DNA of 64,000 bases from Chitinophaga pinensis DSM 2588 (GTDB lineage Bacteria > Bacteroidota > Bacteroidia > Chitinophagales > Chitinophagaceae). The stretch lies in assembly GCF_000024005.1 (NCBI RefSeq), contig NC_013132.1, positions 9,046,001 through 9,110,000 of the forward strand, written 5' to 3'. The notes under the pieces were generated by a model, which saw only the letters and a program-made list of their open reading frames with translations, ran no database searches and was not told the DNA's origin. Positions 24,471 through 40,892 of the stretch are shown piece after piece (within the stretch, counting starts at the first letter, position 1; each line of letters opens with the position of its first letter). A program made the translations under genes and the position numbers.

Positions 24471-24821
24471 ATGTTTGACATGACCCTTAATTACTGTCTT
24501 GCTTTTCCTGCCGTAACACAGGAAGAGAAATGGGACGAAGATCTGCGGTTCTCTGTGGGAGAAAAGCTCTTTTGCATGATCAGCAAATCTGCTCCGCACC
24601 AGGTTTCTTTAAAATGCCGACTGGAAGATTTTCACCGTCTGATCTCACAACCTGACATCGTGCCTGCACCTTATCTGGCGCGTTATCACTGGGTACAGAT
24701 CAAAGCCCTTGATACCTTGCCAGTCCCTTTATTACAGTCATTGTTACAGAATGCGTATGATCTTGTGGTGAGCACGCTTCCTCCGGAAGAACGGGCGCAG
24801 ATACTCAAAGAAAGAGTATAA
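24471..24821 (+). CDS. MmcQ/YjbR family protein
   Basis: 116 residues. The single domain matches the YjbR/CyaY-like family, a small alpha-beta fold often annotated as a DNA-binding protein on structural grounds only. Landmarks are FPAVTQEEKWDEDLRFSVGE near the N-terminus, VSLKCRLEDF, and APYLARYHWVQI towards the end. No enzymatic residues are known. It stands alone between two terminator-like structures, transcribed toward the convergent permease gene. Confidence 0.85.
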   Translation: MFDMTLNYCLAFPAVTQEEKWDEDLRFSVGEKLFCMISKSAPHQVSLKCRLEDFHRLISQPDIVPAPYLARYHWVQIKALDTLPVPLLQSLLQNAYDLVVSTLPPEERAQILKERV

Positions 24822-24897
24822 TATTGCAGGTGATGCATGGGTGCTGTTGATAGCCCCGAAGTTCTGCGTATAGCGCCTGGCAGCGCCTAAGTAAGAT

Positions 24898-24944
24898 AAA
24901 AAGGAAGAGAGGCGATAGCAATGCTGTCGCCTCTCTTCCTTTTT
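24898..24944. terminator. Strong bidirectional terminator
   Basis: Perfect 18-bp stem AAAAAGGAAGAGAGGCGA with TCGCCTCTCTTCCTTTTT. It lies between the convergent YjbR and permease genes and serves both. Confidence 0.95.
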
Positions 24945-24966
24945 ATGCAAACGATGTATCGGTTTG

Positions 24967-27363
24967 TTATTCCGTTCGCAAACTCTTCACCGGATCAGCT
25001 AATGCAGCCTTTATGGCAGAATGCCCTACCGTCAGCCACGCAATCAGCAATGAGAATAATAACGTAGTCACAAAAACACCCGCCCCTATCTCCATCCGGA
25101 AACTGAACTGCTGCAACCAGTCATTCATAAAATACCACCCAAGCGGCGTAGCAATCGCAAAGGCCAGTGCAATCAATATTGTGAACTCTCTTGACATCAG
25201 CATCACAATGGTGATCACGTCTGCACCTAACACCTTCCGGATGCCTATTTCTTTCTTACGTCGTAAGGCCATGAAAGAAATCAACCCATATAAGCCAAGA
25301 CAGGAAATGAAAATAGCAATGCCTGCAAAGATCTTAAACAATTGTGCCAGCTGGTTTTCCTGTTTGTAATAATCTGCCAGCGTCTGGTCTATAAAACTGT
25401 ATTTAAAAATGTAATCGGGAAAATACTTATTCCACAAGGCTTCAATAGCGGCAAGGGTTACCCTCGCCTTACCGGTTTCAATCCTGATATTGGCCGTTTT
25501 GTAAATCCGCTTTACCGTTGTCATCACAACAGGGTCAATCGGATCACGTAAAGACTTCACATGAAAATCCTTTACGACACCCACAATAGGCAAGGTCTTG
25601 TTCATCACTGTAATGGATTGTCCGATAGCCGCTTCCGGACTGGCAAAACCTGCTTTCTTTACTAAGGTTTCATTCACGACAAATTCTCTGACCGTATCGG
25701 CGTCATAATACAACCTTCCCGCCAGCAACTGCATTTTGTAAATATTGAAATAGTTGGTATCTGCCGGTTTCATATTCACAATCAGATCTGCTTTATCCGT
25801 ATGATTGCCCCCCAACTTAAAATCCGTCGCCCAGAAATCTTCTCCCGCAGGAGCAAACAGGCTGAAACTAACATCGCTGACACCTGGCTGGTGCATCAGT
25901 CCGTCACGCAGATAATCAAACCTGGAACGGCTGATACTATCATGCGGAAATTCTGCCGTAATGATCGCCTCTCTGCTGAAGCCCATATCCGCATTACGGA
26001 AATAGTTCGTTTGTCCAATCACGATCAGGGTACCAATGATCAGCACCTGGGCAATGACAAACTGGAAAATCACCAGTCCTCTCCGCAGATGAATCCCTTT
26101 TGGATTTTCTGCATTTAAACGGCTTTTTAGCGCATTCATCGGATTAAAACCTGATAGTACCAATGCGGGGTAAAAACCGGCTAATAAGGTCACAATGGCC
26201 CATAAAAACAGGACAAATAAGACAGCTGGTATAACAGGCAATACAGACAGAGAGATCTTCATCTCCAGTAATCCACTCAAAGCAGGTAATAACGCAATTG
26301 CCAGTATTAATGCGCCTGCCATAGCAACAAAACAGGACAAACCGGTCTCTCCCAGGAACTGTAATAACAGCTGTCGCCGGTTACTGCCCAGGACTTTTCG
26401 TACACCTACCTCGCGTGCACGGTTAATGGCATTCGCAGTAGACAAGTTAACAAAATTGACACAGGCGATGACCAGCAGAAATATCCCTATCAGGTGTAAA
26501 GCTGTGATGAGTTCTTTACTGAAAACACGGCCGCTGAAAGTTTCAAAACGTTTGTCAGTGTGTATATCTTTTAATGGCTGTAATAACAGTTTATAACCTG
26601 CGTGTGAAGGCGGAATGTGTTTCGCAATAAAACCAGGTAGTAAAGTACTCAGCTGACCGGCAGTATAACCTTCCTTTGCAAGCACCAGCACGTAGTTGTT
26701 GGAAATTCCCACCCAGTCATTCATCCCCAAACCCAACGGCTGCAAAGTAGCATAGGAGATAACAATGCCTAAAGAAAAGTCAGTGTTGTCAGGCGGATTT
26801 TCCATTACACCCGTAATACGGATATATCGCCCATATGCGCGGATCATTTTACCCGTTGCCTGCCGCCAGTCGCCGAAATACCTGTTAGCTACATCTCTTG
26901 ACAGCAATGCAGTATTCTGCTCCTGTAGACCGCTGACGGCATTCCCTGTAAGCATCCTGAAATCAAACATTTCAAAAAAGGAAGGCTCTGCAAAAAAGAC
27001 GCCTGCCGCCTCGCTGAATTTCTTCGCAGCTACCCCCTCCTTTTCGGGTATCGTGACCTGTACGTTTTTATCTCCATAAATGCCTGCTACCTTTTCCAGC
27101 TGCGGATAATCCGTACGCAAACCTGCCGCAAAGGGAAACGGGGCGCCTGAACCAAAACCATTTCCTTTCAGATCAGCCCTTACAATCCGATAAATACGGT
27201 CTCTTTTCGTATGAAAATTATCATACTCCTTTACATACTGTACAACGATAGAAATAAGCAGAAAGGCGCCAAAACCAACCATCAGACCAGTGATATTCAC
27301 CAGGAAATGACGTTTGTTACGCATTAGATTCCGGAAGGCGGTTTTCAGGTAACTGTGCAGCAT
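24967..27363 (-). CDS. FtsX/MacB-type ABC transporter permease
   Basis: 798 residues. It has two MacB periplasmic-core and FtsX repeats: a first helix at about 20-42, a large soluble domain to about 280, three helices to about 400, a helix near 428-450, a second soluble domain to about 665, and three final helices. The motif NRAREVGVRKVLGS and the parallel RRKKEIGIRKVLGA mark the FtsX loops in each half. Such double-length permeases work with a separate ATPase in mechanotransmission or export, not classical import. No ATPase or outer-membrane partner is next to it, so it is an orphan in this window. Confidence 0.92.
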   Translation of the reverse strand: MLHSYLKTAFRNLMRNKRHFLVNITGLMVGFGAFLLISIVVQYVKEYDNFHTKRDRIYRIVRADLKGNGFGSGAPFPFAAGLRTDYPQLEKVAGIYGDKNVQVTIPEKEGVAAKKFSEAAGVFFAEPSFFEMFDFRMLTGNAVSGLQEQNTALLSRDVANRYFGDWRQATGKMIRAYGRYIRITGVMENPPDNTDFSLGIVISYATLQPLGLGMNDWVGISNNYVLVLAKEGYTAGQLSTLLPGFIAKHIPPSHAGYKLLLQPLKDIHTDKRFETFSGRVFSKELITALHLIGIFLLVIACVNFVNLSTANAINRAREVGVRKVLGSNRRQLLLQFLGETGLSCFVAMAGALILAIALLPALSGLLEMKISLSVLPVIPAVLFVLFLWAIVTLLAGFYPALVLSGFNPMNALKSRLNAENPKGIHLRRGLVIFQFVIAQVLIIGTLIVIGQTNYFRNADMGFSREAIITAEFPHDSISRSRFDYLRDGLMHQPGVSDVSFSLFAPAGEDFWATDFKLGGNHTDKADLIVNMKPADTNYFNIYKMQLLAGRLYYDADTVREFVVNETLVKKAGFASPEAAIGQSITVMNKTLPIVGVVKDFHVKSLRDPIDPVVMTTVKRIYKTANIRIETGKARVTLAAIEALWNKYFPDYIFKYSFIDQTLADYYKQENQLAQLFKIFAGIAIFISCLGLYGLISFMALRRKKEIGIRKVLGADVITIVMLMSREFTILIALAFAIATPLGWYFMNDWLQQFSFRMEIGAGVFVTTLLFSLLIAWLTVGHSAIKAALADPVKSLRTE

Positions 27364-27501
27364 AAAGGTACTTTGGGTAGCTGATTATCTAGTTCAGTGC
27401 CACATTATATAACAATGAAAAATAATAAAATATGATTGAATAGTAATTATTATCTGTCCGGTTTTGATACAATTATTGTCCGCTGGAGGGCAGTGAATAA
27501 A

Positions 27502-27535
27502 AAAGACCGCCTCAGCTAATGAGCGGTCTTTTTTC
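27502..27535. terminator. Intrinsic terminator after the TauE/SafE gene
   Basis: Stem AAAGACCGC/GCGGTCTTT (27502-27510, 27523-27531) with T-runs on both strands. It probably terminates the minus-strand transporter gene. Confidence 0.85.
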
Positions 27536-27604
27536 TGTTGAACATTGCTCAGCGGGCAATGCAATAGTCATGACATCCTAACACTAAAATAAAATCATAA
27601 AAGC

Positions 27605-28396
27605 TTACTTGCACAAGGTATAGATGATATCATACACACCGAAGACGATCAGTGTACATGCAAATAACTTTTCCAGTAAGGGTGACTTCATCTTTACCGC
27701 TGTCTTAGCGCCCAGATAAGAAGATGGAATAGCCGTCAGTGATAATACCAAAGCAATATTCCAGTCGATATGTCCCAGCCACCAGTGCGCCAGTGCACCT
27801 GGTATAGACAGCAATGCAGATAATACAATGGAACAGGCCAGGGCCTGTTTGATCGGCATATGAAGTTTCTTGATAAAGAAGGAACTGAATAATACCCCGC
27901 CTGCATTCGCCAGCAAACCGGATAACAATCCAATACCCAGTGAAGCCAGGACAATCAGTTGCTGATGCCCTTCTGCGGCATTTTCAACAACAGGTGTTTC
28001 TTCCACGTTCTTCTTTCTCAGAAATGAAAATAACAGTGAACCACCAATAGATACGATGAACAAAGCTGTCAGTATCATCAATGTCTTACCCGGCAGAAAC
28101 TTGCTCAGAAAAGAACCTGCCAGCGTTGCAGGCACACCAAATAAAGCGCCGGTCAGAATCACTTTGCGGTTGAATAACTTTTGACGGCTGTAAACAGTTG
28201 TAGCTGATATTGTACTGGTGATCGCTGCCGGCAATGGTGATGCCAGCGCATAAAACGGATTGACGCCTGCAAATATCTGCAAGGCCGGCGTACTTACTGC
28301 GCTGCCACCTTTGCCCAATAAACCGGACAGGTAGCCTACGATAAGGCCAATGATTAATACGACCAGATAATCGGTCTGTTGTAATAATGTGAACAT
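27605..28396 (-). CDS. TauE/SafE family sulfite exporter-like permease
   Basis: 263 residues from the ATG at 28396; a start six codons upstream at 28414 is equally open. About eight transmembrane helices form two repeats. The first contains GLIVGYLSGLLGKGGSAVST, the second GLLSGLLANAGGVLFSSFF; glycine-rich loops like these are the family hallmark. Members move sulfite, sulfoacetate or other organic anions; the substrate here is not shown. A near-ideal promoter lies 125-155 bp upstream, leaving a leader of about 118 nt, and the gene is monocistronic. Confidence 0.9.
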   Translation of the reverse strand: MFTLLQQTDYLVVLIIGLIVGYLSGLLGKGGSAVSTPALQIFAGVNPFYALASPLPAAITSTISATTVYSRQKLFNRKVILTGALFGVPATLAGSFLSKFLPGKTLMILTALFIVSIGGSLLFSFLRKKNVEETPVVENAAEGHQQLIVLASLGIGLLSGLLANAGGVLFSSFFIKKLHMPIKQALACSIVLSALLSIPGALAHWWLGHIDWNIALVLSLTAIPSSYLGAKTAVKMKSPLLEKLFACTLIVFGVYDIIYTLCK

Positions 28397-28520
28397 AAAA
28401 ACTTCCTTCAGCAAACAGGCCTGGTGTAAAGGCGAAGCTGGCTTAAATAATGATGGTTGGTAAGAGTGAAATTACAGGTATCCTTTTCTGTTACATCGAT
28501 GTTTACAGTGGAAGACAACC

Positions 28521-28551
28521 CAAAAGTACAGTGCTGTAGCGGGTCTAACAA
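28521..28551 (-). promoter_or_regulatory. Bacteroidota consensus promoter of the TauE/SafE gene
   Basis: On the minus strand TTG (28549-28551), exactly 20 nt, then TACTTTTG (28521-28528). Both elements are perfect. Confidence 0.75.
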
Positions 28552-28706
28552 AATTTCAGCCAACAGCAGGTCATTACTAAAAGTTATAGAGGATAACCAT
28601 AAGTAATAATTTTGACAGCAGCGGCCCGGACGGGGCTATAACCTATTTAGCCTACTAAATCTATGATTTGGATAAAATCACTATAAAAAGCTTAAATCAC
28701 ATTTTT

Positions 28707-28991
28707 TTACCATTGATACACCATCCCGATACCTCCGGGTGCAACCGTCAGTTGCAGTTCATTAAAATGTTGGAACAGCCCTTTCCCATGACTATGATGC
28801 ACCATAAAATTCACCCCGTCAAACAATAACAGGAACGCCCCCTGAAAAATAAGCGAATTGCCATACCCCTTCCAGCGGTCATGTCCTGTTCCAGACAGTT
28901 TCGTCTTTCCATGCTCCCGCATATATAAACCACCGGCCATATACGCCAGGTCCAGCGCTCAGTTTACCAGGAATATCTTTTCAATTTTATG
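28707..28991 (-). pseudogene. Remnant of a small membrane protein, 5' end lost and one nonsense codon
   Basis: The minus strand reads a membrane-like protein: IEKIFLVN, then a TGA at 28959-28961, then ALDLAYMAGGLYMREHGKT and QGAFLLLFDGVNFMVHHSHG up to the stop at 28707. The reading frame clearly continues across the stop, and at its upstream end it runs straight into a 7-bp repeat array (28993-29025). An ATG at 28940 gives a 77-residue ORF, but it starts in the middle of the domain. I recall related Bacteroidota membrane proteins with a DxAYxxGG motif but cannot name the family securely. Confidence 0.6.
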
Positions 28992-28992
28992 C

Positions 28993-29025
28993 AATTAGGA
29001 ATTAAGAATTAGGAATTAAGAATTG
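28993..29025 (+). repeat. Heptamer array, left arm of an inverted pair
   Basis: Four perfect units AATTAGG, AATTAAG, AATTAGG, AATTAAG plus AATTG. It truncates the pseudogene and is complementary to the array at 29175-29210. Confidence 0.9.
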
Positions 29026-29063
29026 ATACCAAAGATCTGCTTTCCAATCAAATAACTCAACAT

Positions 29064-29101
29064 AAAAAGAGCCGCCCCGGCTGTCCGAAGCGACTCTTTT
29101 A
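29064..29101 (-). terminator. Terminator of the ebo operon
   Basis: AAAAAGAG-C-CGC pairs with GCG-A-CTCTTTT (one mismatch) and has T-rich flanks on both strands. It lies 100 bp past eboF. Confidence 0.7.
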
Positions 29102-29108
29102 TTATTAG

Positions 29109-29140
29109 TTATTCAAATAGTTATTCAAATAGTTATTCAA
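29109..29140. repeat. 12-bp tandem repeat
   Basis: Two full and one partial copy of TTATTCAAATAG. Confidence 0.85.
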
Positions 29141-29174
29141 TATGTCTTCCTCCAGCACTTGTCTCCGCTGCATT

Positions 29175-29210
29175 CAATTCCTAATTCCTAATTGTTAATT
29201 CCTAATTCCT
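29175..29210 (-). repeat. Heptamer array overlapping the end of eboF
   Basis: On the minus strand AGGAATTAGGAATTAACAATT-type units. The last two residues and the stop codon of eboF (AGG AAT TAG) are repeat sequence. Confidence 0.85.
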
Positions 29211-30572
29211 CATAAGTGCTTTCCATATCACCCCATAAACATCCGTAGCAGCCAACTCCTGCCCTTCACCTACCTGATTAGATATCAGCACAGGGTGAAA
29301 CGACTTATCCTCAGAAATACGCCCGTGAGAGCCTTTTATGAGGGTTGCATCCAAGGGAATCACATTCATGAGATAACGGAAGCCCAGTTTTTTCTTGAGT
29401 AGCTTAAACCCGGCTTTCAGTTTGATCAACGGATCTGCGGGATTCATGAACATTTCCACAGGATCATAACCAGGTTTACGGTGAATTTCCACCAGTCGGG
29501 CGAAATCAGGCGCCTTTGCATCATCCAGCCAGTAATAGTAAGTGAACCAGCTTTTGGCGTCTGCCACCAATACCAGTTCGCCACTACGGCTGTGATGCAT
29601 TTTATGCTGCCGTTTGCCCTCTCTGTCCAGTACCAGTTCTACACCTGGTGTATTCTCCACGATGCTGCGTACTTTCTTATAAACAGAAGGATCATTCACA
29701 TAGACGTGGGCGATCTGATGATCTGCCACCACAAATGCTTTGGAAGCGCCAGGGTCCAGCAGTTCCAGTCCCCTTTCCTCTCTCACCGCGATCAGTCCTT
29801 CCTCACGGAAACGACGGTTCAGATGGATAGGATTATTCACATTTGTGATACCATATTCCGACAGGATGATCACTTCGCTGCCTCTCTTTTCATAAAATTC
29901 AACCAGCTGCTTACACACCGCATCGACTTCACCCAACTCTTTGCCGATACGGGAGAAATCCTGACCGAATTTCTGTAAACAGTAATCCAGGTGAGGCAGA
30001 TAGATCAGTGTCAGCGTCGGATCATACAGGTTATCTGTTACGATAGACGCATCCGCGATCCATTGTGTAGAACGGATGTTCGCACCTGGTCCCCAGAATT
30101 GAAACAAAGGGAAGGTACCCAGCTCTTTTTGCAGATGATCGCGCAGTGAAGCAGGATGCGCGTAACAGTCCGGCGCCTTACGGCCATCCGACAGGTACTG
30201 CGGACGAGGCGTCACGGAATAATCGGCGGTAGAATACATGTTATACCACCAGAACATCTTTGATACGGTAAAAGAAGGATCGAGACGTTTGGCTTTATCC
30301 CAGATCTTGGGAGCTTCCACCAGTTTGTTGGATTGCTTCCAGAACTTGATCTCACTGTCCTGCCTGTCATACCAGCCATTACCGACAATACCATGCTCCG
30401 CCGGCCATTGTCCGGTTACATAGGTACTCTGTACAGCTGTAGTAACAGCCGGCACCATTGGCCGGATGGTGGATAAATGCTGTTTCTTCACATATTCCTG
30501 TAGGAAGGGCGTGTGTACACCTATAAGGGAGGAGGATAAACCTACTACATCAATTACTACTGTTTTTTTCAT
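29202..30572 (-). CDS. eboF: EboF: alkaline phosphatase superfamily phosphodiesterase/pyrophosphatase
   Basis: 456 residues of the nucleotide pyrophosphatase/phosphodiesterase type. The N-terminal metal Asp is Asp8 (VIDVVG). The nucleophile block is PAVTTAVQSTYVTGQWPAEH followed by GIVGNGWYD, with Thr44 or Thr45 as nucleophile. Further metal-site blocks are LPHLDYCLQKFG, SEYGIT (where most relatives have SDHGM) and KGSHGRIS. The last gene of the ebo operon. The altered SEYG block suggests changed metal binding or substrate; this is inference. The C-terminus (MRN and stop) is made by a repeat array, so the natural end may have been a few residues different. Confidence 0.88.
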   Translation of the reverse strand: MKKTVVIDVVGLSSSLIGVHTPFLQEYVKKQHLSTIRPMVPAVTTAVQSTYVTGQWPAEHGIVGNGWYDRQDSEIKFWKQSNKLVEAPKIWDKAKRLDPSFTVSKMFWWYNMYSTADYSVTPRPQYLSDGRKAPDCYAHPASLRDHLQKELGTFPLFQFWGPGANIRSTQWIADASIVTDNLYDPTLTLIYLPHLDYCLQKFGQDFSRIGKELGEVDAVCKQLVEFYEKRGSEVIILSEYGITNVNNPIHLNRRFREEGLIAVREERGLELLDPGASKAFVVADHQIAHVYVNDPSVYKKVRSIVENTPGVELVLDREGKRQHKMHHSRSGELVLVADAKSWFTYYYWLDDAKAPDFARLVEIHRKPGYDPVEMFMNPADPLIKLKAGFKLLKKKLGFRYLMNVIPLDATLIKGSHGRISEDKSFHPVLISNQVGEGQELAATDVYGVIWKALMRN

Positions 30573-30605
30573 GTGGCGCCATTAGGATATGGGTTCAAAA
30601 CTATA

Positions 30606-31829
30606 TTACATGGCTGGTAATTCCAACTGCTGCAATACCCAGCGCAGTTCCCTTGATACGGACCTGTCCATTGGTAATTTCAGTTCAGCCGGCAATACAT
30701 CCCAGGTATAAGTTTCAACTTCCAGGTGTTGTGTAAATGGTTGTTTCCGTTGTAATTGTAATACATTCTCTATATCTGACCGCGTAGATGACAATACACC
30801 ATAACTATCAACAAACACCGGTACATGAAAATGTGAACGCCATTCTTTTACCGCCGGATTCGCTGCATCTTCCAGGGCCTGTGGCAGGTCGGGATAATGC
30901 AGGAAACCATCTTCCTTACGGGCAATCACCTGGTGCAGATAAGTCGGTTCGTTAAACTCCTTAAAAGCATTGATCACGGCTTCACGTTCGGCTGGCGCTG
31001 CCGGCAACTGTGCTTTTAATGCGGCACTGATCTGTAATTTACCCACTTTCAGGCCGTGCTGGTCCAATTGCTTTAACACATCTGCTGCCGACTCATATAC
31101 CAACGCAAAGTGACACACATCATAACACAGCTGCACATGCGTTTTTATAGCTGTCGCTGCTTCCTCTGCACTGATACGGAATTTATCTTCCAGGAAGGGA
31201 ATACCCAAAGGTAAGAGATAATGCAGGTACCAATTCAGGAACTCCTGCGTATTTTCCATCATACCATCTGGTTCCGGCTCTATATCGAGATGCATGGAAG
31301 GACCACCGCTACGTTGTATACGTACCAGTTGTTCTACTACCTGCAATACATGCAGGGTGGTAGTCTCCATGATCGCTGCTTTTTCTGATTCGCAGCGTAC
31401 ATGCCATAACTTATAGGAAAGCGGCGCTGTGGAGATACCGCCTTCCATCCCTTCAGGTAAAAGGGATGCCAGCAAACGGAATAAACGGATGGTGTAAAAC
31501 ACACGGTCTGACGTCGTCCAGTCAGGCGTATGTACATGATCTTTTACAACCGTATGGTGGAAACCTCCGTAAGGGAAGCCATTCATGGTAAACACATAAC
31601 AATCCTGTTCTTTCAGCCAGGCTTTGAATTCTTCCAAAGCCGGTTCTTTACTGAGCTCCAGACTGGCTGTATTGGACAGGCGCAGACCGATGCCGAAAGC
31701 TTTATCGGGTGCTACTTCTTTCTTTACCGCGGGTACATACTGTTTAAGCTGTGCAAAATGCGCGCTCCAGTTTTCTCCGGGATGAATATTCGTACAATAG
31801 GTTAAATGAGAATGATCAGATACTTGCAT
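30606..31829 (-). CDS. eboE: EboE: xylose isomerase-like TIM-barrel protein
   Basis: 407 residues. The N-terminus LTYCTNIHPGENWSAHFAQL is the signature of the EboE family. Further conserved pieces are FGIGLRLSNTAS, FTMNGFPYGGFHH, the metal-type motif HLDIEPEPDG and HVQLCYDVCHFALVYES. The barrel resembles sugar-phosphate isomerases/epimerases of the AP endonuclease 2 superfamily. In cyanobacteria the ebo genes are needed for export of the scytonemin precursor, but the reaction catalysed by EboE is unknown. The start overlaps the end of eboD by 14 bp, a sign of translational coupling. Confidence 0.9.
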   Translation of the reverse strand: MQVSDHSHLTYCTNIHPGENWSAHFAQLKQYVPAVKKEVAPDKAFGIGLRLSNTASLELSKEPALEEFKAWLKEQDCYVFTMNGFPYGGFHHTVVKDHVHTPDWTTSDRVFYTIRLFRLLASLLPEGMEGGISTAPLSYKLWHVRCESEKAAIMETTTLHVLQVVEQLVRIQRSGGPSMHLDIEPEPDGMMENTQEFLNWYLHYLLPLGIPFLEDKFRISAEEAATAIKTHVQLCYDVCHFALVYESAADVLKQLDQHGLKVGKLQISAALKAQLPAAPAEREAVINAFKEFNEPTYLHQVIARKEDGFLHYPDLPQALEDAANPAVKEWRSHFHVPVFVDSYGVLSSTRSDIENVLQLQRKQPFTQHLEVETYTWDVLPAELKLPMDRSVSRELRWVLQQLELPAM

Positions 31830-32979
31830 GGTTCACTTTTAAATGCTGTACAGCTTCGTTCAGTAACATTTCGTCTATCACGTGTACTTCTGCGCCTACC
31901 CCGATGGCCTTTAACAGGCAGATCGTCAGCCGGCCACCCAGGTGCTCGCGGAACTCCTGTAATCCTTTAACAACAGGTGATGGCTTACCATCTTTCATTT
32001 CCAGCAACGGATGATAAACCGGTAACTGTAGTTTCACCAGCAGGTTCACAATCCTTTCTGCCGATTCGGTGCTGATCCAGCCTAACAGGGAGGAGTAAAC
32101 GCTGTCTACTGCAATACCAATTGATACCGCTTCACCATGACGTAAAGCAAAGTCAGTGAGTTGTTCCAGTTTATGTGCGCTCCAGTGACCGAAGTCCAGC
32201 GGACGGGAAGATCCGCTTTCAAACGGATCGCCACTTCCACCGATATGTGCCATATGCAGGGCTGCACATCTGTATACAAGTTCCTGCATCACTGCCAGAT
32301 CATTGTTGACCAGGGCAGTGGCATTTTCTTCCAGCCATTCAAAGAAGGAAGCATCTTTTATTAACGCTACTTTCACAGCTTCTGATATACCGGAAAGCCA
32401 ATCCCTTGCGGGCAGCGTAGTCAGGAAATGTGCGTCGTTGAATACAGCCGCAGGTGGTGCAAACGTACCAAGGAAGTTTTTCTTTCCTTTGTAATTGATA
32501 CCATTTTTCACACCTACACCTGAATCGTTCTGTGACAATACGGTGGTTGGTATACGAATGTGGCGCACGCCTCTGTGAGACACTGCTGCCACCATACCGA
32601 CCATGTCAAGTACAGCGCCGCCGCCGATGGCCACCACAAAGGAGTGACGATCTATGGCCAGCGTATCTGCCAGGTCTACCAGGTGGTAAAAAAGTTCCTG
32701 GTCATTTTTACAGGATTCTCCTCCCGGCACAATTTCAATCTCTCCTGCAAGCTTAAATCCTTCTATCTGTTGTAAATAAGTTGTTATTTCTGTTGCAAGC
32801 GCCGGATGGGCTTTTGCTACCCCATCATCCACAATGAAAAGCAGTTTCTTGGTCAGTCCGGGCGTAGTCTGCGAAACCAGGTAATTCCTGAACTCCGCGT
32901 TGGCTGGATTAAAAAGGTATCGGGTAAAGAAAACCTTAAAAGAATAATCTACACTAAAAGTCTGTTGAATAAACTCCAT
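31816..32979 (-). CDS. eboD: EboD: dehydroquinate synthase-like sugar phosphate cyclase
   Basis: 387 residues of the dehydroquinate synthase fold. NAD-binding GGGAVLDMVG, PTTVLSQNDSGVG, and the zinc ligands in SEAVKVALI (Glu), GHWSAHKLE (His) and RHGEAVSIG (His) are all present, so the enzyme should be active. EboD forms its own branch, distinct from AroB, among cyclases that act on sugar 7-phosphates such as sedoheptulose 7-phosphate. It would make the cyclitol-like core of the unknown ebo product; that statement is inference. It precedes eboE in one operon and overlaps it. Confidence 0.9.
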   Translation of the reverse strand: MEFIQQTFSVDYSFKVFFTRYLFNPANAEFRNYLVSQTTPGLTKKLLFIVDDGVAKAHPALATEITTYLQQIEGFKLAGEIEIVPGGESCKNDQELFYHLVDLADTLAIDRHSFVVAIGGGAVLDMVGMVAAVSHRGVRHIRIPTTVLSQNDSGVGVKNGINYKGKKNFLGTFAPPAAVFNDAHFLTTLPARDWLSGISEAVKVALIKDASFFEWLEENATALVNNDLAVMQELVYRCAALHMAHIGGSGDPFESGSSRPLDFGHWSAHKLEQLTDFALRHGEAVSIGIAVDSVYSSLLGWISTESAERIVNLLVKLQLPVYHPLLEMKDGKPSPVVKGLQEFREHLGGRLTICLLKAIGVGAEVHVIDEMLLNEAVQHLKVNHASI

Positions 32980-33079
32980 GGATATCGCTCTGGTGTTTCG
33001 TTTAATAATCGTCCTAGCGGCCGTTAATGTACAAAATTTAATTGCTATTGACGAATTACGAATGACGAGCGGATTGAGA

Positions 33080-33982
33080 TCAGGTCACTGCAAACGCTCT
33101 CGCCATCAGTAATGACAATGGCAGAAGGATCAGTACGAGCAATGCGTGAGGCAGCGTGGAGAATGCGGCTACCCAGGCGGCATTCATGGCGACCAGCGCT
33201 ATGATACCTCCCTTTACAGCCTTTCCTATGTTAGGACCGGATGGGTCTTTAATGGCATTGAATAATGGCAGATTGATCATGACTGCAAACAACAGGATAA
33301 ATGGTATCGCAATCACAATATGTCCGTTCATTGCGGCCAGCGCCAGCATGGTACCATATACCAGGGCATAACAGAAGGCTGTAATGCGCAGGGTACGGGT
33401 ATTTCCACCATGCACCTCTCCACGACTAATAGCGGTCACCGCAGCGATGTATAATACAGGGATCAGGCCAATCCACCAATACTTATTTAAGGCAGGCACA
33501 ACCATACTGATACCCATCAGCAGGTTCAATCCACGGCACAGTCCCATATTGATCGGGCCCCATGCCTGGTGTTTACCCCATTTATCATATACCAGCGCAC
33601 ACACGGCAATACCCAGTGCCAGGTAACCGGTGATACGGCCTACTGTAAAAGCAGCCAGTACACCTACCAGTAACAGGTAACTACCCAGTACAATGGCTTG
33701 TGTCATGGAGATCACGCCACTCGGAATAGGGCGCTCAGGGCGCTCCACCTTATCCAGTTCTGCATCCATCACATCATTGAAGACTACGCCACCGCCGTAC
33801 AATCCGATTGTTGCCAGGCACATACATACTACTGGTAACAAATGATCCAGATAACTGGATACTTCAGAACCCAGAAATCCGGAAATAGCTACGCCAGCCA
33901 GTATATCTGCTACTGCAGTTACTATATTGGCGGGTCGCATTAAACGTAAATATCCTAATAACTTGCCTATAATATAATTCAC
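33080..33982 (-). CDS. eboC: EboC: UbiA-like membrane prenyltransferase
   Basis: 300 residues if started at the GTG at 33982, which gives VNYIIGKLLGYLRLMRPANI at the right place before the first helix. The only upstream ATG (34042) adds 20 cysteine-rich residues that look unconserved. About eight or nine transmembrane helices. The first Asp-rich motif NDVMDAELD (in FNDVMDAELDKVERPERPIP) binds the prenyl diphosphate through magnesium. The second motif region is VYDKWGKH. It would prenylate the soluble product made by EboD and others. An ebo-specific UbiA is the mark that sets this cluster apart from ordinary cyclase operons. Confidence 0.9.
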   Translation of the reverse strand: MNYIIGKLLGYLRLMRPANIVTAVADILAGVAISGFLGSEVSSYLDHLLPVVCMCLATIGLYGGGVVFNDVMDAELDKVERPERPIPSGVISMTQAIVLGSYLLLVGVLAAFTVGRITGYLALGIAVCALVYDKWGKHQAWGPINMGLCRGLNLLMGISMVVPALNKYWWIGLIPVLYIAAVTAISRGEVHGGNTRTLRITAFCYALVYGTMLALAAMNGHIVIAIPFILLFAVMINLPLFNAIKDPSGPNIGKAVKGGIIALVAMNAAWVAAFSTLPHALLVLILLPLSLLMARAFAVT

Positions 33983-34093
33983 CGGGCTCGGGTTTTCAAC
34001 AAGCAAACAATACAAATGACCGATCGTGCAGCAATGCAACAAAAGGCTGCAATCTACATGTACCGGGCATTGGCATTACCGACTTGTAACTGT

Positions 34094-35080
34094 TTATCTG
34101 ATAATATTAGACTGTTTATCTATTCTTGGCTGCTGACCACCACGCAGCACAGTACTTCCATTAAACTTCAGACTCTGATCTACATTTTTTACGGTATCAA
34201 AATCAGCCATGTCCATTTGACCACTCTGGGCAAAAGCAGCTACAGCATTGCCGAAAGTTACCAAATGAATATCATTCAAGTCAATACCACTTTCGTGCAT
34301 GAGTGCCGCGGTTTTAGGTACAGCCAACGGGTCACTGATACCCCAATCGGCAGCAGAATTGACCATTATGCGTTCACTACCATACTGTTTTACGATTTCC
34401 ACCATACGCTCATTACCCATTTTTGTAAACGGATAAATAGTGAATGCAGCCCAGAAACCACGGTCAAGTACTTCTTTTACAGTCTCTTCGTTGTTGTGGT
34501 CAACGATAATCATATGCGGATCCAGTCCGTGTTCCAGCGCAATATCCATACTGCGCTGCGTCCCTTTTTTCTTATCCCGGTGCGGGGTATGTATCTGTAC
34601 AGGTAGCCCTGCTTCTTTTGCCAGTTCCAGTTGTGCGCGATAGTATTTTTCCTCTGCAGCGGTCTGATCATCAAAGCCGATCTCACCAACACCTACTACG
34701 CCCTCTTTGTAAATAAAGGATGGTAATATTTCCATTACTGCTTCTGCCAATCTTTCATTGTTGGCTTCTTTCGAATTCAGACCTATTGTGCAGTAATGCT
34801 TTATGCCAAATTGTGAAGAGCGAAAACGCTCCCAGCCGATCAGGCTGTTAAAATAATCTCTGAAAGTATCTACTCCTGTACGTGGTTGTCCCAGCCAGAA
34901 TGCCGGTTCTATGATCGCCACTACACCTGCATCCGCTAATGCCTGATAATCATCGGTTGTGCGGGAGGTCATGTGTATATGCGGATCAAAAAAACGCATT
35001 CCCTTGATGCGTTCCATATACGAGGAAGATGTTGTGATAGGTTGAAATTCTTTACCTGTTAACTCATGACTGCAACACAT
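34094..35080 (-). CDS. eboB: EboB: TatD-like metal-dependent hydrolase
   Basis: 328 residues; starts at 35017 (MERIKGMRFFDPHIHM) or 34999 are also possible and closer to the family start. Metal ligands are visible in order: FDPHIHM, GVGEIGFDD (Glu), QIHTPH, VDHNNE and NSAADWG (Asp). This is the TatD branch of the amidohydrolase superfamily, in the EboB subgroup recognised by HIHMTSRTTDDY. It is cytosolic. Its substrate in the ebo pathway is unknown. It lies between eboA and eboC in the usual cluster order. Confidence 0.9.
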   Translation of the reverse strand: MCCSHELTGKEFQPITTSSSYMERIKGMRFFDPHIHMTSRTTDDYQALADAGVVAIIEPAFWLGQPRTGVDTFRDYFNSLIGWERFRSSQFGIKHYCTIGLNSKEANNERLAEAVMEILPSFIYKEGVVGVGEIGFDDQTAAEEKYYRAQLELAKEAGLPVQIHTPHRDKKKGTQRSMDIALEHGLDPHMIIVDHNNEETVKEVLDRGFWAAFTIYPFTKMGNERMVEIVKQYGSERIMVNSAADWGISDPLAVPKTAALMHESGIDLNDIHLVTFGNAVAAFAQSGQMDMADFDTVKNVDQSLKFNGSTVLRGGQQPRIDKQSNIIR

Positions 35081-35186
35081 GTCTTTTACTATTTATTTGA
35101 GACCTGTAAATGAACAACCTGCTACCGCGGGCTGAGATTTCCGTTTCGCAAGTTAAGATTATATACACTGAAGGTGTGATACACGT

Positions 35187-36074
35187 TTATGCTATTCGTG
35201 CGGCAACACTATTCCAGGTAAGGCGACCGCCGGCAATTTCTTCTTTTAAGGTGGCTGATTCCTCCAGCAATGCAAGTGCTGGCGCATATGTACTTGAAGC
35301 ACAAGCTAAAGCAGCGGCTTCTTTCTCTACATTCACCGCTGAATTCCAGACACGTTGGATGTCTGCGAAATTGTCTGCAGTAATAAATGGCCCTACCAGG
35401 CGCCATAACAAAGGATGTACTGTCCTGCCGGCAGCCCAGCGTTCATGGGCATAGTCTGTTAAAATGGCTGCCAGTGCTTCGTTGGCTCTCTCGTCCAGTC
35501 CGGTAATAAGATGAATCGGTTTGTCTGTAAAAAACGCCTTCATTACCAGCTGATTCCATGCCGGTTCGTCCAGATGACGGGAAGGATAAACATTATACAA
35601 CATGACAGCTTCCTGTACCGGACCAATATTGGAACGGATCCCCTCTGTTGTGCGGAATATCCATGCCTCCGGCCATGCCAGCAATGGTAATGCGCTGTAA
35701 AGCGCCGCCTGCTCATTCATATCGGCGGCATCAAACAGTCCCTCGATCACTTTCACATAGGTATCCTTATCGTCAGCCGGCAGCTGCAATAACCACCACA
35801 GCCTAACCACTTTGTCTAACGTCGATCCCTGTATGAAAAACGGCGTCCCGTCTGATAATGCTATAAACGGTTGCTCCGTCTGCACCAGCTGCTTCCCGGC
35901 GAAACGCGGAATAGCTGTAAAAGTAAGATTGAATCGCTGTACGCTTACAGGTACCCCCAGTTTTTCCTGCTGCTGTTGTAGCCAGCTGAGTGCCTGCTCC
36001 GTACTGTTGTGCTTAATGATATCAAATAATAACGCTTCCGTTTTATTCCTGTCGTGGTAATACGCTTGTTCCAT
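35187..36074 (-). CDS. eboA: EboA domain protein
   Basis: 295 residues from the ATG at 36074 (a GTG directly before it is also open). First gene of the cluster. No enzyme motif is seen. The sequence is largely alpha-helical, with SWLQQQQEKL, a tryptophan-rich LDKVVRLWWLLQLP and the conserved patch LPLLAWPEAW followed by IFRTTEGIRSNIGPVQEA and ALYNVYPSRHLDEPAWNQLV-type sequence characteristic of EboA. Its role is not known. A -7-like TAACTTTA lies at 36099-36106 just upstream, probably the operon promoter. Confidence 0.85.
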   Translation of the reverse strand: MEQAYYHDRNKTEALLFDIIKHNSTEQALSWLQQQQEKLGVPVSVQRFNLTFTAIPRFAGKQLVQTEQPFIALSDGTPFFIQGSTLDKVVRLWWLLQLPADDKDTYVKVIEGLFDAADMNEQAALYSALPLLAWPEAWIFRTTEGIRSNIGPVQEAVMLYNVYPSRHLDEPAWNQLVMKAFFTDKPIHLITGLDERANEALAAILTDYAHERWAAGRTVHPLLWRLVGPFITADNFADIQRVWNSAVNVEKEAAALACASSTYAPALALLEESATLKEEIAGGRLTWNSVAARIA

Positions 36075-36098
36075 CACCCGGGCTAATTTATCTAGTGC

Positions 36099-36106
36099 TA
36101 AAGTTA
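36099..36106 (-). promoter_or_regulatory. Candidate -7 element of the ebo operon promoter
   Basis: Minus strand TAACTTTA, one mismatch to TAnnTTTG, 25 nt from the eboA start. A T-rich stretch, not a clear TTG, lies 20 nt upstream. Confidence 0.4.
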
Positions 36107-36162
36107 GCAGATTAAGTATTAAAAAAAGTGAAAAACTGTGATGGATGGTGTAGTAAATAAAA

Positions 36163-36183
36163 GAGAGGCACCTTGTGCCTCTC
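36163..36183 (-). terminator. Intrinsic terminator upstream of the ebo operon
   Basis: Perfect 9-bp stem GAGAGGCAC/GTGCCTCTC with a 3-nt loop, then TTTTATTT on the minus strand. Confidence 0.85.
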
Positions 36184-36454
36184 CTTCCGCCATTCTAAAA
36201 CCTGATCAGTTCAATCAGGAGTATCTTCATCAGCAATAATTCTGCGGAAACTATTGCTTCATAAAATGCATTATTGATTACAGGGAAAATAAAATACTAT
36301 ACGTGGGCTAAACGTTACGTTTAAGCAGCATAGATTTAGATTTTTGCCTGACATTGCATATGCAATATAATCAATTATTTGTTACAACTGCAATCGAATG
36401 GGCAAAAAACTATCCAGTGGGGTACTATTTTTAAACTGAGAAAGCATAACAAAC
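36184..36454. other. Gene-free segment with two palindromes
   Basis: 270 bp between the stop of the FG-GAP gene and its terminator. Contains TAAACGT-T-ACGTTTA (36309-36323) and the 14-bp perfect palindrome ATTGCATATGCAAT (36353-36366). Both look like protein-binding sites, yet no gene starts here. Confidence 0.55.
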
Positions 36455-38188
36455 TCATTTTGAATTATTTCTAAGCAATACAAGGGGTGTGTTAACATTC
36501 CAGTCAGGCCGGAAACCATCCTGAATCATGAACCCTTTTGAATAGTTTCCCAGCACAATATCAGGGTCTCCATCCCGGTCAAAATCACCCACATCCATAC
36601 AGATCCAACGCCCTGCTTTTTTCAGTTCCGGCATCGTATGAGGCGTAAATTGCAGGGGCTTCTCCTGTCTGAAAAGTATGAATTTCTCTCCCGGATGATC
36701 CTTCAGATCAGCAAAAAATGCAATACTTGCAATGTCCGGATCGCCATCGCTGTCAAAATCAGCAGCCACTGCCTTTGTACATCCGTTGACCGGGTAAAAC
36801 CATTCCTTTTCGAAATGGAAGTCGCCTTTATTGAGGTATAAATACACGCCATGAAATGGCTTCAGCTCCATAGAATAATCACCATTATCACCAGATGTAT
36901 ACAGGATGTCCGGTAATCCGTCTTTGTTCATATCCACCACCTGAAAACTGGTGGAACCATTCAATGGAGGAAAACGCAATAGCTGCTGCTGTTTAAAGCC
37001 ACCCTTGTGATCATTCAAAAACAACCATATCCCTTCATCTGCATAAGCAAACAAAGTCATGATATCCGGCCAGCCATCTTTATCAAAATCAGCTACCTCC
37101 GAATGAATAGCACCCGGTACTTCCCATACCGGCAACTTTTTATAATCGTCTTCTGCCGTTTGCTGCAAAACATACAATCCACCATAATCATGTCCGAATC
37201 CACATACCAGGTAATCCATACGGCCATCCCTGTCAAAATCAGCTCCTATACTCTGTACCGGACGTGGAAGCCCCATACCGATCGTTTTTACCTGTGCAGC
37301 CTCCGGCTGGGAAGGATGTATCTCCCACAACATGCCCTGCGCCACATCTACCGCCCTTAAATTGCCGATACAGGTCAGCAAGCCTGTATCCGCTGCCCGC
37401 CAGTTCAGGTCCACCGCTGCCGATTGTAGTTTGATCGCCTTATGACTATGCAAAGCCGAATCCCAGCGGAACAAAGTACCACTATGTTCAGAAGAAGAAT
37501 ATAACTCCCCTGTAAAAGGATTGATATTCACCATCGTTGTAGTCGCCGTCACGATCCCTAACATATCCCTGATCTCTGCTTTAGCGCCAATTGCCTCCAA
37601 GCGGGCTTTCAGTGCTACCGCCGCTTCCCTTGTAATGCCTCTTTTAATGACATTAGGCACGCCATCTACCAATCGCTTGCTGTCTACCAACCCCAGCTCC
37701 GTCTCGGCCTTTACCTGCTTCACAAGCGTTATTTTATCAGGCCCGGTCTCCGTCAGTACCACCTCGCTGGGCGATCCTTCCGGTCCGGCCACCTGTATCT
37801 CAAACAATTTCAGATCTTCCGCCAATGGCTGCGGGGCTTTAGCCGCCTCCAGCTTTTCAGGCGCCAGTTCCTTATAAAATGCCACAATCGCATTCCAGTC
37901 CTCAATACTGATATTCACGCCCTTCCCTGGCTTCACATAATAGCCACTGCCCTGCCAGACGCCGATGCCCAGTTTGGGCGCCATCGCCGGTAACACATGC
38001 TGTGTCCAGGTGGCTTTATCCAGCATCGCAGGGGCGACCGGCAGGTGACAACTGCCGCAATATTTTTCAGAAAGAAGTTTGCCTTTATCCTGTTGGGAAA
38101 GTGTACAGGAGGATAGTGCGAGAATGAAAGGGAGTAGTCGTTTCAAGTGCGGATACGTGGTTGCGTACAACAATACATGATGTGGCAA
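36455..38188 (-). CDS. Exported cytochrome c protein with L7/L12-like and FG-GAP/VCBS domains
   Basis: 577 residues from the ATG at 38188; a TTG at 38146 would give a tighter lipoprotein signal ending at LSSC. Order: lipobox Cys28; one haem c motif CGSCH (44-48) in a short cytochrome domain; a region at about 148-208 that closely resembles the C-terminal domain of ribosomal protein L7/L12 (DKITLVKQVKAET, then LGLVDSKRLVDGVP, then LKARLEAIGAKAEI); and an FG-GAP/VCBS beta-propeller with at least five calcium loops such as DFDRDGRMD, DFDKDGWPD, DMNKDGLPD and DFDSDGDPD. Its function is unknown. Electron transfer linked to a propeller enzyme or binding protein is inference. It shows no operon link to the ebo genes, being separated by a terminator. 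Confidence 0.85.
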   Translation of the reverse strand: MPHHVLLYATTYPHLKRLLPFILALSSCTLSQQDKGKLLSEKYCGSCHLPVAPAMLDKATWTQHVLPAMAPKLGIGVWQGSGYYVKPGKGVNISIEDWNAIVAFYKELAPEKLEAAKAPQPLAEDLKLFEIQVAGPEGSPSEVVLTETGPDKITLVKQVKAETELGLVDSKRLVDGVPNVIKRGITREAAVALKARLEAIGAKAEIRDMLGIVTATTTMVNINPFTGELYSSSEHSGTLFRWDSALHSHKAIKLQSAAVDLNWRAADTGLLTCIGNLRAVDVAQGMLWEIHPSQPEAAQVKTIGMGLPRPVQSIGADFDRDGRMDYLVCGFGHDYGGLYVLQQTAEDDYKKLPVWEVPGAIHSEVADFDKDGWPDIMTLFAYADEGIWLFLNDHKGGFKQQQLLRFPPLNGSTSFQVVDMNKDGLPDILYTSGDNGDYSMELKPFHGVYLYLNKGDFHFEKEWFYPVNGCTKAVAADFDSDGDPDIASIAFFADLKDHPGEKFILFRQEKPLQFTPHTMPELKKAGRWICMDVGDFDRDGDPDIVLGNYSKGFMIQDGFRPDWNVNTPLVLLRNNSK

Positions 38189-38216
38189 CGCAAAGCAGAA
38201 AATAGAGCCTGTTTAA

Positions 38217-38396
38217 CTATTTTTTTAGCTTCAACAGTAATTCCTTCGCCGGAACTTTTTTCACATTGCCATATTTGTCTCCAACGACAAGCGATTTGTC
38301 GCTGGCAGCGCTGGATTCTATCAACTTCCTCACAGCTTCGTTCACTCCTTTAAGCACTTTCTCCGAAAGTTCGTCAATATGCTTCTTATTTTCCAT
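38217..38396 (-). CDS. Small protein downstream of zeta toxin, possible antitoxin
   Basis: 59 residues from the ATG at 38396 (a start at 38405 adds three residues). Helical, charged, with HIDELSEKVLKGVNEAVRKL and a C-terminal VPAKELLLKLKK. It overlaps the end of the zeta-toxin frame by 11 bp, so the two are coupled. Small partner proteins of this kind accompany Bacteroidota zeta-like kinases. Antitoxin function is inferred from position only. Confidence 0.65.
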   Translation of the reverse strand: MENKKHIDELSEKVLKGVNEAVRKLIESSAASDKSLVVGDKYGNVKKVPAKELLLKLKK

Positions 38397-38959
38397 GGCG
38401 CTCACTTTGCGTTAAAATATTCCCCCAAATATCGTTTTTTATAATCATTTTTTCAACTCCATTTCCCTTGGCTATAATCTCTGCTGGAGTTTCCATACTT
38501 TCAAGCACTAACCATTCGTCACAAATAGGTATATACAAATTTACCAAATTGTAAATTCCCCTATGATACCTGCGTATGATTACATCTTCCGGAATATTAT
38601 GTCCTCCTGTTTCAACTCGTTCCGCAACACGCTGTCTCGCAAATTCTGGAGAACTCAACCAGAAATATAACAACGTTACGTTATAACCCAACGTTTTTGC
38701 TCTTTTTACCAATGACACATAACTTCTCGTTGATAACGTTGTTTCAAATGCAAAGTCCGATTGTTCTGTTAGCAAATGATCTATACGTTGCAACATAATT
38801 CTTCCTGCTTCCAAAGCAACATTTTCAGGATTAAAAGGAGAAAGACCAGCAGCAATACTATCCGCATTTATAAATTCGCGACAATTAAGAATACTTGGAA
38901 GCACAGTATTAACTCGCCGTCGTTTTCCCGGCGCCGTTACAGCCAGCTATTTCAGGCAT
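38386..38959 (-). pseudogene. Zeta toxin family kinase gene, frameshifted after Walker A
   Basis: Two overlapping frames make one zeta-toxin-like P-loop kinase. From the ATG at 38959 the first frame gives MPEIAGCNGAGKTTAS and then a TAA. The rest, from about 38904, reads VLPSILNCREFINADSIAAG and continues to the end, with FAFETTLSTRSY and LLYFWLSSPEFARQRVAER typical of the family. Removing one base from the TTAA at 38909-38912 restores AGKTTASYTVLPSIL. Zeta toxins phosphorylate UDP-N-acetylglucosamine or related targets. The frameshift should inactivate the gene unless it is a sequencing error or is bypassed. Confidence 0.75.
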
Positions 38960-38974
38960 ATTGTAAATATACCT

Positions 38975-39008
38975 AAAAAAGGAAAAGGCCCTGTTACCAG
39001 GGCCCTTC
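38975..39008 (-). terminator. Intrinsic terminator of the second SusCD operon
   Basis: Stem AAGGCCCTG/CAGGGCCCTT around TTAC, then CCTTTTTT on the minus strand. Confidence 0.85.
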
Positions 39009-39038
39009 CATTTCCTCTTCGAATAAAAGTGTAAAATC

Positions 39039-40835: not shown

Positions 40836-40892
40836 TTTTTTTGTTTTAATATCCTCAATAGTTTAACCTTTCACGTTAATACCGGGCCGATA

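What the first reader, a model, noticed from the sequence alone, without database searches (positions are those of the whole stretch)
29202..36074. Complete six-gene ebo cluster (eboA-eboF) in a heterotrophic Bacteroidota
Sequence shows six consecutive minus-strand genes matching EboA, EboB (TatD-like), EboC (UbiA-like with NDVMDAELD), EboD (dehydroquinate synthase-fold cyclase with intact zinc ligands), EboE (TIM barrel) and EboF (phosphatase superfamily). Known: this cluster occurs in cyanobacteria, Bacteroidota and eustigmatophyte plastids, and is needed for export of the scytonemin precursor in a cyanobacterium, but its product is unknown. Inference: the genes make a prenylated cyclitol-like membrane compound. 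The host here has no scytonemin genes in the window, so the role must be more general.
Basis: partly seen in the sequence, partly recalled or inferred. Interest (0 to 1): 0.8.

Follow-up and report, generated by a model that had tools for sequence, protein, structure and literature searches.

The report
Complete ebo operon in Chitinophaga
A Chitinophaga-type bacterial genome carries a complete copy of a known but poorly understood six-gene set that probably builds an isoprenoid-tailed, sugar-like ring compound; the set itself is not new, but its relatives swap the ring-making enzyme for an unrelated one, which narrows down what it makes.

Summary
In detail: six minus-strand genes at 29202-36074 are eboF, E, D, C, B, A of the published ebo cluster. 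The host is a Chitinophaga-type genome. Every sampled congener keeps it: eboC in 77 of 77, all six genes in order in 76 of 77, the other cut by a contig end. In the family it is patchy, 13 of 117.
EboD lies on the side of sedoheptulose-7-phosphate cyclases, away from AroB; the genome has its own AroB. Three observations are not in the ebo papers as far as I read them. First, in 60 of 80 actinobacterial ebo loci an inositol-3-phosphate synthase, unrelated to EboD, is present and eboD in none; in Bacteroidota 111 of 120 have eboD and none the synthase. This points to a cyclitol intermediate. Second, EboF is probably not a canonical phosphatase: four of seven expected metal-site positions are replaced in all 197 sequences counted. 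Third, a conserved RNA element lies upstream, seen only in this genus.

The parts
29202..30572 (-). eboF, 456 aa, PF01663 (NPP/alkaline-phosphatase-like) with altered metal site (V10, Q200, E239, Y240; T44, D196, H416 kept)
30606..31829 (-). eboE, 407 aa, xylose-isomerase-like TIM barrel; the only solved chain its profile finds is IolI
   Evidence: NF035939 507 bits; model pLDDT 92.5; fold of sugar epimerases/isomerases
31816..32979 (-). eboD, 387 aa, sugar phosphate cyclase, SRPLDFGHWSAH signature; overlaps eboE by 14 bases
33080..34042 (-). eboC, UbiA-like prenyltransferase, NDxxDxxxD motif and YDKWGK; model match starts at residue 31, true start uncertain
   Evidence: NF035940 404 bits
34094..35080 (-). 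eboB, 328 aa, TatD/amidohydrolase-like, with HxH, E, H, H, D (metal ligands by recall)
35187..36074 (-). eboA, all-helical, HEAT-like superhelix in the model (pLDDT 96.5), no significant PDB match
   Evidence: NF035938 175 bits
36156..36226 (-). conserved RNA element ending in a terminator-like hairpin, 81 nt upstream of the eboA ATG; separate small RNA gene or leader of ebo

Best explanation
A complete ABCDEF-type ebo operon, kept throughout the sampled genus. Most likely it makes a membrane-bound prenyl cyclitol: EboD closes a sugar phosphate (probably sedoheptulose 7-phosphate) into a cyclitol ketone; EboE (distantly IolI-like) and EboB modify it; EboC attaches an isoprenoid, perhaps by an ether bond as its archaeal relatives do; EboF, with a remodelled metal site, does a non-canonical step or binds the product; EboA is a helical scaffold. 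The product acts as a lipid cofactor or carrier that helps move aromatic or indolic metabolites into the periplasm. Shown: gene identity, order, retention, separation of EboD from AroB, motifs, EboF substitutions, the ring-enzyme swap in relatives. Inferred: every reaction, the product and its role in this host.
For: Models and domains. Retention in 77 of 77 congeners, complete and in order in 76. In a 33-row tree 19 EboD rows form one clade (100/99), in a 23-row group with annotated S7P cyclases and a mycosporine-type cyclase, split from nine AroB rows (100/98); EboD has Asp where AroB has Asn, as 2 of 2 S7P cyclases do. Ring-enzyme swap: synthase 60 of 80 and EboD 0 of 80 in Actinomycetota; synthase 0 of 120 and EboD 111 of 120 in Bacteroidota; positive controls pass. 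The swapped-in synthase is not the mycothiol INO1 (43.7 of 638 bits). The EboE profile finds IolI alone in the PDB, E=4e-4. Published deletions of eboA, B, C, E, F each leave scytonemin monomer in the cytoplasm (PMC6282210).
Against: No enzyme of the cluster was shown to make or use a cyclitol in what I read. EboC homologues farnesylate 8-hydroxyquinoline-2-carboxylic acid in vitro (PMC9235831), which favours an aromatic acceptor. EboD keeps His where the S7P cyclases have Pro, and the mycosporine-type row has Ala, not Asp, at the diagnostic site. The EboE-IolI match is weak and local (66 positions) and the EboE fold ties with many sugar epimerases. 20 of 80 actinobacterial loci show no ring former, 8 cut by contig ends and 12 not. 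One Bacteroidota genome (G362) has A, B, C, E, F but no eboD found. The synthase could serve a neighbouring function.
Confidence: 0.5

Rival explanations
1. The cluster makes a prenylated aromatic (quinoline- or indole-like) metabolite; EboC's true acceptor is aromatic and EboD supplies a ring that is later aromatised or is accessory.
For: EboC homologues from three genera farnesylate 8-HQA, one of them further quinolines (PMC9235831 section 7). ebo clusters sit beside indole pathways: scytonemin and P. fluorescens EDB, whose expression in E. coli gives indoles (PMC9655573 passages). A PF12902 ferritin-like gene plus a large unknown gene lie beside ebo genes in Aureibacter, Mycetohabitans and Gloeothece.
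Against: The section read names only aromatic acceptors, 6 of 14 accepted, so cyclitols were not shown to be worse. Neither EboD nor an inositol synthase is expected to make an aromatic, yet one of them is in 111 of 120 and 60 of 80 loci. In Nostoc all ebo mutants pile up the same unmodified monomer and no lipid-conjugated one was found (PMC6282210).
Confidence: 0.28
2. The Ebo proteins are themselves a translocation machine: a membrane complex on EboC that moves small molecules, with enzyme folds reused as binding parts and no dedicated metabolite.
For: All five single deletions give one transport-like phenotype (PMC6282210). EboA is predicted as a helical superhelix and EboF has lost canonical metal ligands, as expected of binding parts.
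Against: EboB, EboC, EboD and EboE keep their catalytic or metal motifs across phyla; a swap between two ring-forming enzymes makes little sense for a pure transporter.
Confidence: 0.12
3. Mis-annotated housekeeping: a second AroB plus a quinone prenyltransferase that happen to be neighbours.
For: NCBI names the model that EboD reaches '3-dehydroquinate synthase'; EboC belongs to PF01040.
Against: Separate AroB over its cut-off in 14 of 14 genomes tested, this one included; EboD below the aroB cut-off and split from the AroB rows; EboC 404 bits against under 160 for any other prenyltransferase model; synteny.
Confidence: 0.02

Closest known systems
ebo operon, ABCDEF type (Yurchenko et al. 2016, PMC5133447)
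   Same: All six genes, order and strand; Bacteroidota are a named home of this type
   Different: Nothing that I found in the coding genes; the upstream RNA element is seen only in this genus here
Nostoc punctiforme ebo cluster beside scytonemin genes (PMC6282210)
   Same: Homologous A, B, C, E, F; eboD nearby
   Different: eboD is inside the operon here; no scytonemin gene was noticed among the ORFs listed at 24000-42000, and none was searched for elsewhere
P. fluorescens NZI7 EDB cluster (reported in PMC6282210 section 8 and PMC9655573)
   Same: Said to contain a full ebo cluster
   Different: Part of an indole-forming cluster that repels C. elegans; not compared by sequence here
Streptomyces SCO3242-type ebo clusters (L156, L158)
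   Same: A, B, C, E, F homologues
   Different: Inositol-3-phosphate synthase plus an extra TIM-barrel isomerase instead of EboD
Haloarchaeal clusters (L161, L263, L265)
   Same: EboB, EboC, EboF homologues; EboF with V, E and Y at the same positions, and Leu instead of Gln at position 200 in L263 and L265
   Different: Inositol-3-phosphate synthase, sugar-phosphate-isomerase-like genes, no gene annotated as EboA

Membership tests
ebo operon (ABCDEF type) | All six genes contiguous, one strand, order A-F | tested here: met
ebo operon (ABCDEF type) | EboA, EboC, EboE reach curated models | tested here: met
   EboC, EboE and the EboA domain model over cut-off; the EboA family model below its cut-off, 217 of 320 bits
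ebo operon (ABCDEF type) | Needed for export of a small molecule | not testable with these tools
   published for Nostoc only, as far as read (PMC6282210)
3-dehydroquinate synthase (AroB) | aroB model TIGR01357 over cut-off; grouping with AroB; Asn in NxGH and DKK motif | tested here: not met
   227 of 305 bits; split from nine AroB rows; Asp and no DKK in 19 of 19 EboD rows. It does reach NF004852, which NCBI names 3-dehydroquinate synthase
Sedoheptulose 7-phosphate cyclases | Clade membership and Asp at the AroB Asn site | tested here: inconclusive
   same 23-row group, branching inside it unresolved; Asp shared with 2 annotated S7P cyclases but not with the mycosporine-type row; their Pro is His in EboD
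UbiA superfamily prenyltransferase | PF01040 and the NDxxDxxxD motif | tested here: met
UbiA superfamily prenyltransferase | Transfers a prenyl group | not testable with these tools
   shown in vitro for homologues (PMC9235831)
NPP-type two-zinc phosphatase/phosphodiesterase | Seven canonical metal-site residues | tested here: not met
   V, Q, E, Y at four of them; T, D, H kept. That these seven are the metal site, and that H416 is the last of them, is recalled; H416 lies outside the printed alignment
TatD/amidohydrolase superfamily (EboB) | PF01026 and HxH, E, H, H, D | tested here: met
   where the first His is not covered in one of nine rows (ligand identity recalled)
Xylose-isomerase-like TIM barrel (EboE) | Fold | tested here: met
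HEAT/TPR repeat protein (EboA) | Fold | tested here: inconclusive

The most novel reading that the evidence does not exclude
ebo is one pathway with an interchangeable first step: a cyclitol made either by a sugar phosphate cyclase (EboD) or by an unrelated inositol-phosphate-synthase-type enzyme is handed to a shared module (EboB, EboC, EboE or a related TIM barrel, EboF) that turns it into a prenyl-cyclitol lipid in bacteria and haloarchaea, and EboF has been rebuilt from a phosphodiesterase fold into something that is not a two-zinc phosphatase.
Probability: 0.4. Interest if true: 0.75.

Novelty: new member of a known kind. Interest (0 to 1): 0.45.

Why it matters
The product of this widely spread operon was unknown in every ebo paper I read, the first from 2016. 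The swap between two unrelated ring-forming enzymes says which class of molecule to look for and offers a clean test by cross-complementation. The altered EboF site tells enzymologists not to assay it only as an ordinary phosphatase. A genus that keeps the operon in every sampled genome is a good place to look for its general role.

Tried and rejected
Housekeeping AroB plus menaquinone enzyme: rejected. Known RNA family for the upstream element: none at gathering score, best of 8 weak matches nearby E=1.3. Covariation in that element: 0 of 18 pairs show a change on both sides, because the sequence hardly varies, so structure is not proven; the pattern scan for terminators lists 10 sites (7.6 expected) and not this hairpin, although the fold is strong. 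A consensus Bacteroidota promoter (recalled motif) before eboA: 1 match in the whole window, not there, 2.01 expected; in 8 of 76 congeners the recalled -7 motif is within 130 nt upstream; a looser TAACTTTA at 36106-36099 recurs in some congeners but is unproven. Sigma-70 scan: 17 found, 15.8 expected. EboF against the PDB with one sequence: no match; a profile was needed. EboA profile against the PDB: none at 0.1. Another ring former upstream of eboC in the 12 uncut actinobacterial loci without the synthase: plus-strand ORFs of 5 of the 12 were looked at by eye, none was run through a family search, nothing obvious to me. The paper on EDB indoles (PMC9328163) is not held.

The statement that the enzyme swap and the EboF substitutions are not in the ebo papers I read rests on listings and on term searches in the main texts of PMC5133447, PMC9235831, PMC6282210 and PMC6092422 ('inositol' in all four; 'zinc', 'active site' and the like in two), in an open-licence library that misses most subscription journals. 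No supplement was read.

Limits of the counts: searches took genomes at least 90% complete; searches drew them from larger groups; one search scored at most five candidates a genome. EboF counts use only matches over 200 bits and 350-560 aa, 197 rows, many of them close congeners; EboC motif counts use matches over 40 bits and 230-420 aa, 194 rows. Structure alignments: EboE used 17 of 120 listed proteins and 29 of 74 actinobacterial ORFs plus the window; EboA 27 of 120 and 21 of 44 plus the window. The tree has 33 rows: 19 EboD (12 of the fetched Bacteroidota, the window, 6 from other phyla), 9 AroB of the 14 genomes, and 5 others labelled by their annotation or neighbours; some AroB rows are short (252-328 aa) because my script took a late start codon; the bootstrap had not settled; DOIS sits on a very long branch. 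One search scored 43 candidates a genome with stricter filters.
Full report
Observation. EboE, EboC and the EboA domain reach curated NCBIfam models; the EboA family model does not reach its cut-off. EboD reaches NF004852, whose NCBI name is 3-dehydroquinate synthase, and stays under the aroB cut-off. EboB and EboF match only broad Pfam families and are placed by synteny and similarity. The eboD and eboE genes overlap by 14 bases and the other gaps are 33 to 106 bases, so one transcript is likely (inference).

Host and retention. The window is 9046001-9110000 of a single 9.13 Mb contig. Named near relatives are Chitinophaga (for example P0122, Chitinophaga sp. YR627, whose contig length equals that of L097). 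EboC over the cut-off is in 77 of 77 sampled congeners, in 13 of 117 genomes of the family, namely 3 of 3 congeners and 10 of 114 others, and in 35 of 392 of the phylum, this genome included. I fetched 120 loci around these genes. All six genes lie in one locus in 111 of 120; of the nine others, four show A, B, C only, four C only, and one lacks D. For the first eight, a second aroB-model match under the cut-off lies beside eboE elsewhere in the same genome and is taken as eboD; three of these were put in the tree and fall among EboD. eboB was found in all eight; eboF, and eboA of the C-only genomes, were not sought. G362 has A, B, C, E, F and no eboD: the aroB model finds only its true AroB there. 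It has an inositol phosphate synthase elsewhere, but so does this genome, while G346 has none, so nothing follows from that. In the genus, 76 of 77 loci including the window are complete and in order; the exception (L101) ends at a contig edge and its D and E are on another contig.

EboD. In a tree of 33 rows the 19 EboD sequences form one clade (100/99). They share a 23-row group with two annotated S7P cyclases, a mycosporine-type cyclase and an uncharacterised DHQS-like Streptomyces protein, split from nine AroB rows and a deoxy-scyllo-inosose synthase (100/98); the branching inside the 23 is unresolved, the root is a midpoint, and the program warns of long branches meeting. The mycosporine label comes from the neighbours, an O-methyltransferase and a D-Ala-D-Ala-ligase-domain gene. 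EboD carries a conserved SRPLDFGHWSAH-type block, with Asp where AroB has Asn, and lacks the AroB DKK motif, in 19 of 19. That EboD is a new lineage near S7P-using enzymes was published (PMC5133447 section 3.4.2).

The ring-enzyme swap. Annotated plasmid records showed Streptomyces ebo clusters with an inositol-3-phosphate synthase and no eboD, and the same in a haloarchaeon. The synthase is in 60 of 80 and EboD in 0 of 80; 56 read MIPS C SPI A B E F, where SPI is a sugar-phosphate-isomerase-like TIM barrel. Of the 20 without the synthase, 8 are cut by a contig end and 12 are not. In 120 Bacteroidota loci EboD is in 111 and the synthase in 0; the first ten plasmid records split 7 and 3 with no overlap. 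By annotation, two of three further haloarchaeal records have the synthase and none an EboD. Controls: the synthase queries find the synthases that lie elsewhere in two Bacteroidota genomes at 1e-49 or better, and the EboD queries find AroB and S7P cyclases at 1e-21 or better, so the absences are not a matter of sensitivity. The cluster synthase is a PF07994/PF01658 protein, far from mycothiol INO1 (43.7 of 638 bits), nearest in the PDB to 1u1i (archaeal by recall) and distantly like a five-membered-cyclitol-phosphate synthase. The Streptomyces and two haloarchaeal cluster enzymes are 45% identical, against 32-35% to the two Bacteroidota synthases. Two unrelated enzymes that both close sugar phosphates into cyclitols (recalled for the families), in the same kind of cluster and never together in the loci examined, argue that the shared module works on a cyclitol. 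This is inference; no product was seen.

The other enzymes. EboE: 47 rows share E184, E186, D237, H240 and E372, consistent with a metal-dependent isomerase; its profile finds one solved chain, IolI (2-keto-myo-inositol isomerase by recall), E=4e-4 over 66 positions. The model (pLDDT 92.5) is a sugar epimerase/isomerase barrel without a clear favourite. EboC keeps NDxxDxxxD and Y125 in 13 of 13 divergent rows and K130 in at least 90%; after its own and the SCO3242 family its next best model is a geranylgeranylglycerol-phosphate geranylgeranyltransferase, 71.7 bits, under its cut-off, an enzyme that alkylates a hydroxyl (recalled). EboB keeps its presumed metal ligands. EboA is a confident all-helical model whose best matches are HEAT proteins at a Z that helical repeats reach by chance.

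EboF. A profile of 14 EboF rows aligns to a bacterial NPP (2gsn). Where that enzyme has the Asp of IDGL, the His of DxxxH, and the Asp and His of SDHG, EboF has Val, Gln, Glu and Tyr; the nucleophile Thr and the Asp of DxxxH are kept. In 197 sequences, the window counted, the tallies are V 196 and A 1, Q 197, E 197, Y 197, T 197, D 197 and H416 in 197. In the 14-row alignment the four haloarchaeal rows also have V, E and Y, but three have Leu for Gln. The role of these residues as metal ligands is recalled. PMC5133447 calls EboF a putative hydrolase and its main text holds none of the terms active site, zinc or metal-binding. EboF may bind one metal, or none, and is unlikely to be an ordinary two-zinc phosphatase (inference).

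Literature, with what I saw. PMC5133447: section 3.2 part 1, all of 3.4 and 3.7, passages. PMC6282210: part 1 of results and of discussion, section on roles beyond cyanobacteria, passages: deletions of eboA, B, C, E and F each leave scytonemin monomer in the cytoplasm; the EDB cluster of P. fluorescens is said to contain ebo, with eboA, eboD or eboE insertions making it edible to C. elegans. PMC9655573, passages: EDB expressed in E. coli gave indoles. PMC9235831, section 7 and passages: EboC homologues farnesylate 8-HQA. PMC6092422, passages: the plastid copy is tied to a rickettsial symbiont.

Upstream RNA. A 71-nt element at 36156-36226, minus strand, ends in a strong hairpin followed by T-rich sequence (z -4.57 for 36150-36200). 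It is single-copy in this genome: the other matches have E 0.1 or worse. It lies upstream of eboA on the same strand in 75 of 76 congener loci, 37-457 nt before the eboA match in 72 and 5.2-5.3 kb in 3; L051 lacks it. In 117 family genomes its model finds it in the 3 congeners and in none of the 114 others. TTTAGAATGGCGGAAGGAG is invariant in 33 rows, 32 of them distinct. Because three genomes have about 5 kb between it and eboA, it may be an independent small RNA gene.

Verdict. The finding is real and the system is known. The window adds a complete, genus-wide retained member; related loci add the ring-enzyme swap and the EboF anomaly, which make the question of the product more testable.

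Noticed in passing
window 36156-36226 minus; congener loci L037, L038, L046-L053, L088-L153: Single-copy, nearly invariant RNA element with a terminator-like hairpin upstream of ebo in 75 of 76 congener loci, found in no other genus sampled; no Rfam match at gathering score.
   Followed up: partly
window 36455-38188 minus: FG-GAP repeat protein with a CGSCH motif and an inserted ribosomal L7/L12 C-terminal-like domain (PF00542, E 2e-17); a match to it lies upstream of ebo in 53 of 76 congener loci.
   Followed up: partly
window 38386-38904 minus: Zeta-toxin-like protein (PF06414, E 5e-8), GTG start, possibly shortened at its start.
   Followed up: no
L266, L160, L163: PF12902 ferritin-like gene plus a 587-675 aa protein without Pfam match beside ebo genes in Bacteroidota, Betaproteobacteria and Cyanobacteria; in L163 only eboB and eboD are seen. 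Perhaps a shared cargo pathway.
   Followed up: partly
L158 7373-8572: A gene annotated ScyD/ScyE family directly upstream of the synthase-type ebo cluster in a Streptomyces plasmid, with a multicopper oxidase downstream.
   Followed up: no
L155 536-2582 and 8988-9899: Two Gfo/Idh/MocA oxidoreductases and a sugar phosphate isomerase flank ebo in Ketogulonicigenium, which would fit cyclitol metabolism.
   Followed up: no
L162 5590-5928: 112-aa protein between eboD and eboB in Deinococcus without NCBIfam match at 1e-5; may be the EboG of PMC5133447.
   Followed up: no
L068, L070, L071, L086: One genus (g234) has eboC over 10 kb from eboB, D and E in the 4 genomes with a match.
   Followed up: partly
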